This document shows, piece by piece, positions 7,433-48,169 of a stretch of 56,073 nt of DNA. The stretch covers positions 1 through 56,073 of the forward strand of contig JAKQWO010000074.1 of the NCBI GenBank assembly GCA_029561955.1. Reading direction: 5' to 3'. The translations under genes and the position numbers were made by a program. Positions within the stretch are counted from its first letter, which is position 1. Every line of letters starts with the position of its first letter. The stretch comes from Candidatus Cloacimonadota bacterium (GTDB lineage: Bacteria > Cloacimonadota > Cloacimonadia > Cloacimonadales > Cloacimonadaceae). Below the pieces are notes generated by a model that ran no database searches, was not told where the DNA came from, and saw nothing but the letters and a program-made list of their open reading frames with translations.

Positions 7433-7453
7433 AAATCATGTCTCTTGGATGCG

Positions 7454-7546
7454 CCTTCCTTGCTTAGCCGCCCGGTGATTACTCGGAGCCACTCGGGAAA
7501 AACCCGAGTATCACCACGGCATCACCGGGCGGGTAAGCAAGGGCGA
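7454..7546 (+). repeat. Nested palindromic element, copy 1
   Basis: About 93 bases between eamA and secG. The outer arms (CTTGCTTA at 7459 and TAAGCAAG ending 7541, each continuing inward through CCGCCCGGTGAT or its complement) pair over about 21 bases with one mismatch. An inner hairpin CTCGGG-AAAAA-CCCGAG sits at 7492-7508. Closely similar copies lie at 33853 and 44972. No open frame with a start spans it convincingly and no T-run follows it, so it is not a standard terminator. Confidence 0.85.
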
Positions 7547-33782: not shown

Positions 33783-33852
33783 ATCCCAGAGAATAGCGGC
33801 GGTTCAGCGACTGCTGACTACCTTTTGGTCGCTACAGTAAGCGATCCTATCT

Positions 33853-33946
33853 CTTCCTTGCTTAGCCGCCCGGTGATTACTCGGAGCCACTCGGGAAAAA
33901 CCCGAGTATCACCACGGCATCGCCCTGCGGGTAAGCAAGAGCGAAG
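33853..33946 (+). repeat. Nested palindromic element, copy 2
   Basis: The same element as at 7454, here in the convergent gap before lptG. The left arm and inner hairpin CTCGGG-AAAAA-CCCGAG are identical to copy 1. The right arm is decayed (CGCCCTGCGGG in place of CACCGGGCGGG). No T-run follows. Confidence 0.85.
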
Positions 33947-44568: not shown

Positions 44569-45372
44569 AAATTGTGTAACTTATAGCGATATAGATGATT
44601 AGCCCTACTTTTGTCTGCCGTAAGAAGGCTTGTTGGGGCTCTGTTAACGATTTTAAAAGATGTCTAACCTATTGAGTATGAATACAATAGAACTTTTTAA
44701 AGCTTTCTGAACCCAGACTGAGTTTAGATAAAATGACTTGCCATTTTATGTGGAGATATTTCCATCGTCCGGTCTAGACTAAGCTGCCCTCCGCACTACC
44801 AACAGATTTGACGCATCCCAAGGTTTTTTTCCTGTCAGCGGCCTAAATGTGTGAGTCGGGTCTCCCTTGCTTCCCTCCTTAAATCCTCCTTAATTCAACA
44901 AGGGTGGATGAGAGGAGGGTGGTCTGTTAAAGACGCTTTCAAATGGCACATCTCTCCAACTCTACCTGCGTCTTCCTTGCTTAGCCGACCGGTGATTACT
45001 CGGAGCCACTCGGGAAAAACCCGAGTATCACCGAGTAATCACCGGGCGGGTGAATAAGGAGGGAAGGGGAAAGACACATGAATAGTGGATTTAGGAGGTG
45101 GCGAAGATGGAGCTTTAGTTTTTCTTTCTACGATAATGAGTTAGCTGTGGATTTTGCCTAGCTTTTTCGAGTGCCAGAGCTGAGACATAATCTCCTGCCT
45201 TTTTGGAAGGTATTGGTTACTAGGGGCGGTTCAGATTTTCAAGAAAAGGCTGTTCGGAATGCTTATAACACTACGGGATGATAACTAATTTGAGTGAGAG
45301 CATTGTAAACGATTATGCAACCAAACAAAACCATAAACTGACCATTTCATCGCTGCAGACCACTAAAAGCAA
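44569..45372. other. Long intergenic stretch without genes
   Basis: About 800 bases between rlpA and the restriction island. I see no gene with a start, ribosome site and known domain. It contains a short AT hairpin (ATAAAATG...CATTTTAT, 44728-44749), a polypurine/polypyrimidine-rich stretch near 44870-44930 and the third palindromic element. No integrase, tRNA or direct repeats mark it. Confidence 0.6.
44972..45066 (+). repeat. Nested palindromic element, copy 3
   Basis: The same element as at 7454 and 33853. Here the central right half reads CCGAGTAATCACCGGGCGG, which restores exact complementarity to the left arm up to GATTACTCGG, in contrast to copies 1 and 2 (CACCACGGC). The outer right end is decayed (TGAATAAGG in place of TAAGCAAG). 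The left end shares CTTCCTTGCTTAGCCG with copies 1 and 2 apart from one base. Confidence 0.83.
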
Positions 45373-45402
45373 TTGACAAAAAGGACTCCTTAAAATACCT
45401 TG
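45373..45402 (+). promoter_or_regulatory. Promoter of the restriction-modification operon
   Basis: TTGACA (45373-45378), a 17-base spacer and TACCTT (45396-45401): a near-consensus sigma70-type promoter, 19 bases before the methyltransferase ATG at 45421. Confidence 0.6.
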
Positions 45403-45420
45403 CGTACATGGAGAAGACAA

Positions 45421-46791
45421 ATGATAGAATCAAGAAATGATGTTATAGAACAACTAAAGAAGCTATTGACCAACAAGATGGTGACAGATCAACAGCTTGT
45501 TTCCTTATTGAGCAGGGTTGGCTATATAAAACCTGGTTGCGACTGCTCAGTTTTTATCAACTTGCAGGCATCTGCAAACCCCAAAATAAGGACACTTGCA
45601 TTAAAGAATCTCGCCAAGACAGCTAACTACAACTATATGTCTCACTACATGCAAGTGTTGAGGTCGGAAGACTCGTCTGAAGTTAGGAAGGAAGCTGTAT
45701 CAGCCATCGGCAGACTTAGAGATCCGCGCACAATTGATGTGATGAAGTATTTGTTGGATGATAAAGACCCAGAGGTTGTGCTGCAAGCCTTGAGAGGTTT
45801 GATTTGTTTCAAAAAGAGAGACGACATATTTTCAATTTTGCTTTCCATGCAATCTCATAGTAACGAAATTATCCGGAGCTTTATAGACAAAGAGCTAAAT
45901 TCATCCAAAGATACAGGTAGCAAGTCTGACGAAGTGAGTTCACCAGACAAATTGAAGAATCTTGTTATTGAGGGTGACGTAGCGAGGATTCTCGATTTTA
46001 TTCCAGATGAGTCGATCCATTTAACCTTTACTTCACCGCCATATTACAATGCGAGGGATTACTCTATCTATCAGAGCTACCAAGAGTATTTAGGCTTTTT
46101 AGAAGGTATATTTAAAAAAATACACCGAGTTACTAAAGAGGGGAGGTTTTTTGCCCTAAACACCTCACCTATTATAATACCACGTGTCAGCAGGCAGCAT
46201 TCAAGTATAAGATATCCTATACCTTTTGATATACACCCCTTGTTGGTAGATATGGGGTGGGAGTTTATCGATGATATAGTATGGGTGAAGCCTGAAGCAA
46301 GCGTCAAGAATCGAGTCGCCGGCTTTGATATGCACAGAAAACCACTCGCTTATAAGCCTAATCCACGTACAGAATATGTGATGGTGTATCGCAAAAAAAC
46401 GCACAAACTGATAGACTGGAATATCCGAAATTATCCTTACAGTACAGTGGCAAAAAGCAAGGTTGAAGGTGAGTATGATACGTCCAATGTTTGGGAGATA
46501 GACCCCGTTTATGATCGTGTTCATTCAGCGGTATTCCCGTTTCTGCTGTGTGAAAAGGTTATCAGATATTACTCTTACATGGGTGATTTGGTTTTTGATC
46601 CTTTCGGTGGTAGTGGGACATTTGCAAAGGCAGCCTTGTCTTTGAATAGATATTTCATAACCACAGAGATTCACAGCGACTATGTAAGACGCATTAAGGC
46701 GAATCTGACACAAAAAGACATATTACAAGACACCAAAGATATAAGCTTTTTAAATACAGAAAGTTTCCAAGAAAGAATGGGGGAGAAATGA
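45421..46791 (+). CDS. DNA methyltransferase (beta-class) with N-terminal HEAT-like domain
   Basis: A 456-aa protein starting at ATG 45421 (GGAGAAGACA before it); the longer TTG frame at 45400 is unlikely. Residues ~50-160 are helical repeats of HEAT/PBS-lyase type (for example SSEVRKEAVSAIGRLRDPRT and DPEVVLQALRGL). The catalytic part holds motif IV TSPPYYN (204-210) before motif I FDPFGGSGT (392-400), a beta-class order typical of N4-cytosine or N6-adenine DNA methyltransferases. It overlaps the nuclease by four bases. The gene is A/T-richer than its neighbours, suggesting transfer. HEAT repeats fused to such an enzyme are unusual. Confidence 0.82.
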   Translation: MIESRNDVIEQLKKLLTNKMVTDQQLVSLLSRVGYIKPGCDCSVFINLQASANPKIRTLALKNLAKTANYNYMSHYMQVLRSEDSSEVRKEAVSAIGRLRDPRTIDVMKYLLDDKDPEVVLQALRGLICFKKRDDIFSILLSMQSHSNEIIRSFIDKELNSSKDTGSKSDEVSSPDKLKNLVIEGDVARILDFIPDESIHLTFTSPPYYNARDYSIYQSYQEYLGFLEGIFKKIHRVTKEGRFFALNTSPIIIPRVSRQHSSIRYPIPFDIHPLLVDMGWEFIDDIVWVKPEASVKNRVAGFDMHRKPLAYKPNPRTEYVMVYRKKTHKLIDWNIRNYPYSTVAKSKVEGEYDTSNVWEIDPVYDRVHSAVFPFLLCEKVIRYYSYMGDLVFDPFGGSGTFAKAALSLNRYFITTEIHSDYVRRIKANLTQKDILQDTKDISFLNTESFQERMGEK

Positions 46792-47714
46792 CTGCTGAAC
46801 AGACGCTCACCAAAAAAGTACTTTCACGGTTGATGAACGGAAGGGATTATCGTAGCCTTGTTATCCAAGATATTAATGAGAAGTTTCTTCGCCAGACAAT
46901 AGACTTCTTCATGAAAGTATGTGAGGCAAAGGCTAATAATCAAGAGATCACGATAGATTGGTACAAAGCCAATTTTATTAAATCTGAGCATATGTCAAAA
47001 GGTGAAGTCATAATAAACTCTGGGTTGAATCAGAAAACCATTACCAACATCTATAAAAGCTGCACGAGAGAAATCGCACTACAGGTTTCTGAAGAACATT
47101 ATGATGATCTGTTGCTGCTTATCGAATCACTTATTGAAGAATACTCTGAGATTGATATCACTTTAACCATTAGATTCAACAGGGTTGCTGTTGAGCTTAC
47201 AGTAAACGAAAGCCTCATTGTAATCAATGCGATAGCAGTGAAAAGATCAGCTTTGCGGGGTGGGGCTTGGAGTATGATAGGGAAACAGGTAGAAAAACCT
47301 CTGATGTTATCACTTTGTGAACTGTTTGGTGTCACAGAAGAGTATTATGAAACTAAGTCTGATATGACAGGCTACCCAGTTTTAGATAGCGGTGATCCTG
47401 CCAGAGAAGTTGATTTCCTGTTGAAAAATGGGGATATGAGATACAATTGTGAGGTTAAATTGATGGGAAAGGGCAATCCTGAAAGTGAGGATTCTGCTTA
47501 TGCAAGGGTAACTCATCTTTTTGTTGCTCAGACCTTATCTCAAGCTAATAAAGAAAGACTGGATAGTAGCGGGATAAAGTGGATTGAGCTTAGTTCAGTA
47601 GAGGGCATAAGTAAATTCAAGACCGTGCTAACTGAGTTTGGTATACCCCACAATGACATTCAGGTAAGTGAGCAGCTTATTGGTGAGGCGATCGATAAAA
47701 TCATGGGGTCATAA
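46788..47714 (+). CDS. Type II restriction endonuclease, PD-(D/E)XK-like
   Basis: A 308-aa protein translated from the overlapping ATGA of the methyltransferase. The region REVDFLL (Asp 209) followed by CEVKLMG (Glu 222, Lys 224) fits a PD-(D/E)XK nuclease core. The N-terminal ~150 residues are mainly helical with no recognised fold. It looks like the CfrBI family, whose members restrict a CCWWGG-type site with an N4-cytosine methyltransferase partner, but I am unsure of that assignment. With the methyltransferase it makes a compact type II system. Confidence 0.68.
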   Translation: MTAEQTLTKKVLSRLMNGRDYRSLVIQDINEKFLRQTIDFFMKVCEAKANNQEITIDWYKANFIKSEHMSKGEVIINSGLNQKTITNIYKSCTREIALQVSEEHYDDLLLLIESLIEEYSEIDITLTIRFNRVAVELTVNESLIVINAIAVKRSALRGGAWSMIGKQVEKPLMLSLCELFGVTEEYYETKSDMTGYPVLDSGDPAREVDFLLKNGDMRYNCEVKLMGKGNPESEDSAYARVTHLFVAQTLSQANKERLDSSGIKWIELSSVEGISKFKTVLTEFGIPHNDIQVSEQLIGEAIDKIMGS

Positions 47715-47894
47715 ACATCAGTGTGGATTACTGCTCATTGCTACAGATAAGAGTATCCTCTACCTCACATTGAAATGCAAGGGATGAACATTATTCAATT
47801 TGTAGCTATCCGATTGGCTCACTTCCCAGTATTGGGAGAATCGTTATAACTTCCCATATACCTCTAAGATAGCGGCTTTGACAAAAGAAAAGGT

Positions 47895-47923
47895 TTGACA
47901 TAAAAGGCTATCTACGATATTGA
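47895..47923 (+). promoter_or_regulatory. Probable promoter of 2-oxoacid oxidoreductase operon
   Basis: TTGACA (47895-47900), a 17-base spacer, TATTGA (47918-47923). It lies 43 bases before the ferredoxin ATG. The rest of the 250-base gap from 47715 holds nothing recognisable. Confidence 0.55.
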
Positions 47924-47965
47924 TGGTCGCATGAAGAAATTAAAGAAAGTAGAAGGAGCACAACC

Positions 47966-48169
47966 ATGCCAAGAATGACGGTTGACCCATATTATTGCAA
48001 AGGTTGTGGGCTCTGCATTTCTGTCTGCCCGAAGAAGATCATCCGCTTCTCGGAAAACATTAATGCCAAGGGTTACCACTACGCCGAGTGTTTCAATCAA
48101 GATGCTTGTATCGCCTGTAAAATGTGTTACAACATCTGCCCAGACGTAGCCATTACCGTGGAAAAGTGA
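47966..48169 (+). CDS. 2-oxoacid:ferredoxin oxidoreductase, ferredoxin (delta) subunit
   Basis: A 67-aa protein with two 4Fe-4S clusters: CKGCGLCISVCP and CIACKMCYNICP. It supplies electrons between the oxidoreductase core and soluble ferredoxin. AGAAGGAG precedes the ATG. Together with the next three genes it forms the standard delta-alpha-beta-gamma arrangement of the KorDABC/VorDBA group. Confidence 0.92.
   Translation: MPRMTVDPYYCKGCGLCISVCPKKIIRFSENINAKGYHYAECFNQDACIACKMCYNICPDVAITVEK

What the first reader, a model, noticed from the sequence alone, without database searches (positions are those of the whole stretch)
45373..47714. Compact restriction-modification system with a HEAT-repeat methyltransferase
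A beta-class DNA methyltransferase with ~110 residues of HEAT/PBS-lyase-like repeats at its N-terminus is coupled (ATGA) to a PD-(D/E)XK-like nuclease. HEAT repeats usually bind protein or nucleic acid; they may replace a missing target-recognition or regulate contact with the nuclease. The pair sits beside the third palindromic element and is A/T-richer than its flanks, suggesting acquisition.
Basis: partly seen in the sequence, partly recalled or inferred. Interest (0 to 1): 0.6.

Follow-up and report, generated by a model that had tools for sequence, protein, structure and literature searches.

The report
CfrBI-like restriction-modification pair, HEAT-fused methyltransferase
This is an ordinary two-gene bacterial DNA-cutting and DNA-protecting system of the CfrBI kind, gained by this genome but not by its sister species, whose protecting enzyme carries an unusual helical-repeat front domain that stays with that enzyme even in relatives where the cutting partner is gone.

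Summary
A 456-aa methyltransferase gene (45421-46791) overlaps by ATGA a 308-aa nuclease gene (46788-47714). The nuclease belongs to Pfam RE_CfrBI (1e-24), with an intact E169...D209...E222-x-K224 site. The methyltransferase is beta-class; its catalytic half is 51% identical to plasmid CfrBI-family methyltransferases. The cassette is acquired: all five other congeneric genomes lack it, one shows a clean empty site, and its GC is 0.396 against 0.48. The palindrome beside it is a dispersed repeat also present at the empty site, so unrelated. The HEAT fusion recurs in three of 125 phylum genomes and three viral contigs. Enterobacterial CfrBI methyltransferases carry another N-terminus, one phage relative none. 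Two HEAT-methyltransferases lack a working nuclease yet keep HEAT, and the recognition region is intact and shared with HEAT-less relatives. So HEAT most likely serves the methyltransferase itself (perhaps as a DNA clamp, inferred), not nuclease contact or a missing recognition domain. Target CCWWGG is likely but unproven. PADLOC already models this nuclease as type II. A new variant of a known kind, of modest interest.

The parts
45421..46791 (+). M: beta-class DNA methyltransferase with N-terminal HEAT repeats, 456 aa
45478..45900 (+). HEAT solenoid of M (residues ~20-160, about five helical hairpins)
   Evidence: HEAT_2 41.8 bits against cut-off 27.7; ten helices in the model
45952..46710 (+). 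Catalytic methyltransferase domain of M (residues 178-430); TSPPYY 204-209 precedes DPFGGSGT 393-400
   Evidence: N6_N4_Mtase 1.2e-39; invariant motifs; PDB matches
46788..47714 (+). R: CfrBI-family restriction endonuclease, 308 aa, overlapping M by ATGA
   Evidence: RE_CfrBI 1e-24; PADLOC REase_II PDLC03496 3.2e-90
47292..47459 (+). Predicted PD-(D/E)XK active site of R: E169 (47292), D209 (47412), E222 (47451), K224 (47457)
   Evidence: invariant in six relatives; on helix and beta-hairpin of the model
45068..47811 (.). DNA absent from congener G033, which has about 70 bp of unrelated DNA here: extent of the acquired cassette
   Evidence: empty-site comparison; GC 0.396

Best explanation
A horizontally acquired type II restriction-modification system of the CfrBI kind. 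M methylates, and R (a PD-(D/E)XK enzyme) cleaves, the same site when unmodified, so incoming unmodified DNA is cut. M is translated first and R follows by translational coupling through ATGA. The target is most likely CCWWGG or a close variant and the mark most likely N4-methylcytosine. The HEAT domain is an accessory module of M itself, standing where plasmid CfrBI methyltransferases carry a different N-terminal domain; its most likely job is to grip DNA next to the catalytic domain and so raise affinity or processivity. Shown: gene pair, families, catalytic motifs, HEAT fold by model, acquisition, recurrence of the fusion, HEAT kept without R. Inferred: enzymatic activity, site, methylated base, expression order, and HEAT as a DNA clamp (this last step at about 0.4).
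For: Pfam and PADLOC matches. Active-site residues and folds. Same pair in G039, G105 and L012. Catalytic part of M 51% identical to M of plasmid CfrBI systems, whose promoter gap carries CCATGG as published for CfrBI (PMC12707154, PMC3978073). Empty site in G033 and absence in all five congeners. CCWWGG 0.88/0.91/0.47 of expectation in carriers against 0.99/0.95/0.97 in non-carriers. HEAT retained in L013 without R and in L011 with R decayed. Nine HEAT positions basic in all six homologues.
Against: CCWWGG depletion is weak, and in G105 other patterns are depleted too. HEAT net charge is only -1 to +6, not the strongly basic surface expected of a DNA clamp. R is only 16% identical to the plasmid R and its PDB fold search was not significant. 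Target recognition can change within such families.
Confidence: 0.8

Rival explanations
1. HEAT is a protein-protein module that holds M to R or regulates R.
For: HEAT repeats often bind proteins (general knowledge); M and R are translationally coupled in the window, L005 and L012.
Against: HEAT is intact where R is absent (L013) or decayed (L011); plasmid CfrBI systems work without it.
Confidence: 0.12
2. HEAT mediates M self-association or binds another host or phage protein, not DNA.
For: Net charge near zero; HEAT diverges faster (40% mean identity) than the catalytic part (71%), as for a surface facing a changing partner.
Against: No constant partner gene besides R was seen in the loci read; nine invariantly basic positions.
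Confidence: 0.3
3. HEAT substitutes for a missing target-recognition region.
For: Accessory N-terminus on an otherwise compact enzyme.
Against: Region 290-355 is present, 72% identical on average in the group and 52% identical to HEAT-less CfrBI-type M; L014 has the core with no N-terminus.
Confidence: 0.05
4. The pair recognises CAGCTG, not CCWWGG, which would explain the near loss of CAGCTG from this genome.
For: G000 has 20 CAGCTG in 2.13 Mb against 628-812 in its five congeners, and the cassette is found only in G000 among them.
Against: Carrier G105 shows no CAGCTG depletion (1.07). G000 has other methyltransferases without close congeneric counterparts on C47, C78 and C79. Recognition region 52% identical to CfrBI-type M.
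Confidence: 0.12

Closest known systems
CfrBI-family type II systems of enterobacterial plasmids (e.g. pEC158, NC_019076)
   Same: R in Pfam RE_CfrBI; M beta order, 51% identical over the catalytic domain including the recognition region
   Different: R and M divergent with a shared promoter gap; M N-terminus about 110 aa, no HEAT match; R 355 aa with D-x-G where the window has E-x-K
PADLOC REase_II PDLC03496 and MTase_II PDLC03276
   Same: R matches over the full length (3.2e-90); M matches from residue 61 (1.5e-68), so part of HEAT may be included; isolated HEAT of L005 matches weakly (8e-4)
   Different: Model N-terminus is shorter than the HEAT part here; the source enzymes are not named in the library
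G120 (L002) RE_CfrBI pair in the same phylum
   Same: RE_CfrBI nuclease next to a methyltransferase
   Different: Methyltransferase has the catalytic motifs in the opposite order and no HEAT
HEAT-like DNA-binding proteins (AlkD family, PMC4433238)
   Same: Helical HEAT-like solenoid; precedent for HEAT binding DNA
   Different: No AlkD-type family among the Pfam matches; analogy only

Membership tests
Type II restriction-modification system | Adjacent methyltransferase and restriction endonuclease of type II families | tested here: met
Type II restriction-modification system | Both enzymes act on the same site; M protects against R | not testable with these tools
   needs expression, methylation calling and digestion
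CfrBI family | R above the RE_CfrBI gathering score | tested here: met
   87.7 bits against 25
CfrBI family | M homologous to the CfrBI-type methyltransferase over the catalytic domain | tested here: met
   51% identity to M of plasmid CfrBI-family systems
CfrBI family | Target CCWWGG | tested here: inconclusive
   weak depletion in carriers
CfrBI family | Divergent R and M genes with a CCWWGG site in the overlapping promoters | tested here: not met
   same-strand overlapping genes; no CCWWGG from 44824 to 48065. This is the regulation of CfrBI, not a condition of the enzyme family
PD-(D/E)XK nuclease | E...D...(D/E)-x-K on the alpha-beta-beta core | tested here: met
   invariant residues on the predicted helix and hairpin; PDB fold search not significant
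Beta-class N4-cytosine methyltransferase | SPPY motif before the FxGxG motif | tested here: met
   TSPPYY 204-209, DPFGGSGT 393-400
Beta-class N4-cytosine methyltransferase | Product is N4-methylcytosine | not testable with these tools
   sequence class does not separate 4mC from 6mA
HEAT repeat | Tandem helical hairpins matching HEAT_2 above cut-off | tested here: met
   41.8 bits against 27.7; ten helices in the model

The most novel reading that the evidence does not exclude
HEAT is an exchangeable N-terminal module that changes how a restriction methyltransferase finds, or is tethered to, DNA or a host protein, and lets a CfrBI-type modification enzyme live on as a stand-alone phage or host methylation factor without a nuclease.
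Probability: 0.15. Interest if true: 0.5.

Novelty: new variant of a known kind. Interest (0 to 1): 0.3.

Why it matters
Six genes from different genomes and viral contigs share a HEAT solenoid fused to a type II methyltransferase, a combination for which no description was found in the searched open papers. Because the same catalytic core exists with HEAT, with another N-terminus and with none, the group offers a clean comparison to test what N-terminal modules do for DNA methyltransferases. Otherwise it is a routine restriction-modification system in a genome that holds several.

Tried and rejected
Link to the palindrome rejected: it is a dispersed repeat with many copies in the sampled G000 contigs, and it is present at the empty site of G033. 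HEAT as substitute for a missing recognition domain rejected: residues 290-355 are conserved. The genome-contig scan returned two false loci, a DWYKANF peptide in an unrelated protein. RE_CfrBI in 398 genomes of another phylum: one over cut-off, a truncated R without a methyltransferase in the 3.5-kb locus read. R and HEAT queries found nothing in plasmids or phages. A 16-nt imperfect direct repeat around the cassette (45124 and 47908) is about what chance gives in a region of this size (own estimate), so not taken as a target-site duplication. PDB fold search of R uninformative. PvuII-type R search in the own genome negative, but with no positive control. Promoter and terminator scan at chance level. 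M alignments used residues 1-455; the true last residue is K456 (no effect on conclusions).

Full report
Anatomy. The first gene, M, runs from ATG 45421 (behind GGAGAAG) to the stop at 46789-46791 and encodes 456 aa. The second, R, runs 46788-47714, 308 aa, and overlaps M by ATGA. Pfam gives N6_N4_Mtase (1.2e-39) and HEAT_2 (1.3e-10) for M, and RE_CfrBI (1e-24, 87.7 bits, cut-off 25) for R. In M, TSPPYY comes before DPFGGSGT, the beta order. The AlphaFold2 model of M shows ten helices from residue 6 to 160, mostly at pLDDT about 90, followed by a methyltransferase fold. Its best PDB matches are TTHA0409, a rotifer N4-cytosine methyltransferase and CcrM, with PvuII methyltransferase lower down. 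The model of R (mean pLDDT 83) places D209 and E222-x-K224 on a beta-hairpin, with E169 on a long helix before it. All four residues are invariant in six relatives. The PDB fold search for R was not significant; its weak top hit was the Nt.BspD6I nickase.

Family. In 125 genomes of the phylum, RE_CfrBI occurs in four. Besides this genome, G039 and G105 carry the same HEAT-methyltransferase followed by R (M 55% and 49% identical). The fourth, G120, pairs a canonical RE_CfrBI (1e-105) with a methyltransferase of the opposite motif order and no HEAT. Among plasmids, the closest M relatives belong to small, mostly 5-13 kb, enterobacterial plasmids whose neighbouring gene is annotated 'CfrBI family restriction endonuclease'. 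Their M is 376 aa, 51% identical in the catalytic part, with a different N-terminus that gives no HEAT match. Their divergent promoter gap holds one CCATGG, as published for CfrBI, where methylation of a site in the overlapping promoters shifts transcription from M to R (PMC12707154, PMC3978073).

Viral contigs gave three more full HEAT-methyltransferases. L012, beside virion protein genes, keeps M-ATGA-R. L011 has a helix-turn-helix domain (HTH_31 6e-12) fused in frame ahead of HEAT-M, and only about 30 residues of R remain, followed by an unrelated nuclease-like gene and methyltransferase. L013 has HEAT-M next to a second, phage-type methyltransferase and no R match in its 148-kb contig. L014 has the catalytic core, 51% identical, with no N-terminal domain at all. 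HEAT therefore belongs to M, is exchangeable, and does not depend on R.

What HEAT may do. Across the six, HEAT is 40% identical on average, the catalytic part 71%. Nine HEAT positions are basic in all six: 57, 62, 66, 89, 90, 98, 100, 125, 157; some of these are also common in ordinary HEAT repeats (and general knowledge). Net charge is only -1 to +6. DNA-binding HEAT-like proteins are known (AlkD family, PMC4433238). A backbone clamp is my first choice at about 0.4; self-association or another protein partner is close behind at about 0.3; nuclease contact is disfavoured.

Acquisition. All five other genomes of the genus lack the cassette and keep both flanks near each other. In G033 the left flank with the palindrome and the right flank are separated by about 70 bp, against about 2.75 kb here. 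Cassette GC is 0.396 against 0.48. The palindrome is a dispersed element, three copies in the window and many in the sampled contigs, so its position beside the cassette is coincidental.

Target. In samples of six genomes, CCWWGG is 0.88, 0.91 and 0.47 of Markov expectation in carriers and 0.99, 0.95 and 0.97 in non-carriers, rank 5 of 434 palindromic patterns for carrier-specific depletion. The hypothesis came from homology, but G105 is low in several other patterns too, so this is weak support. The stretch 44824-48065, which contains the cassette, holds no CCWWGG. CAGCTG is almost absent from G000 (20 copies against 628-812 in congeners). G000 has other methyltransferases without close counterparts in its congeners, on C78 (solitary), C47 (beside a nuclease-like gene) and C79, so the cause cannot be assigned, and carrier G105 is not depleted.

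Known or new. PADLOC's REase_II model PDLC03496 matches R over its whole length at 3.2e-90, and MTase_II PDLC03276 covers M from residue 61, hence possibly part of HEAT. The isolated HEAT of L005 also hits it, weakly (8e-4). So relatives are already catalogued as type II, perhaps with the HEAT part. No held paper describing HEAT-fused restriction methyltransferases was found. I rate it a new variant of a known kind.

Noticed in passing
whole genome G000: CAGCTG is nearly absent: 20 copies in 2.13 Mb against 628-812 in five congeners, the lowest density of 125 phylum genomes; 3 observed against 163 expected in 364 kb. Suggests strong recent restriction at CAGCTG by an unidentified system.
   Followed up: partly
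G000 contigs C67 (L101), C32 (L103), C47 (L104), C78 (L100), C79 (L102): Other methyltransferases in the genome: an MvaI/BcnI-type pair, a TdeIII-type pair, a 696-aa methyltransferase beside an unmatched nuclease-like gene, a solitary beta-class methyltransferase, and a methyltransferase near a contig end.
   Followed up: partly
window 44974-45060, 7450-7542, 33852-33946: A ~95-bp palindromic element dispersed through this genome and its relative G033, present at the empty site as well.
   Followed up: partly
L011:4623-6314: A helix-turn-helix (XRE-like) domain fused in frame to HEAT plus methyltransferase, with R decayed to about 30 residues; possibly a self-regulating methyltransferase.
   Followed up: no
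window 45381-45391: Perfect 11-bp palindrome AAGGACTCCTT just downstream of a TTGACA hexamer upstream of M, operator-like; not found upstream of the other HEAT-methyltransferases.
   Followed up: partly
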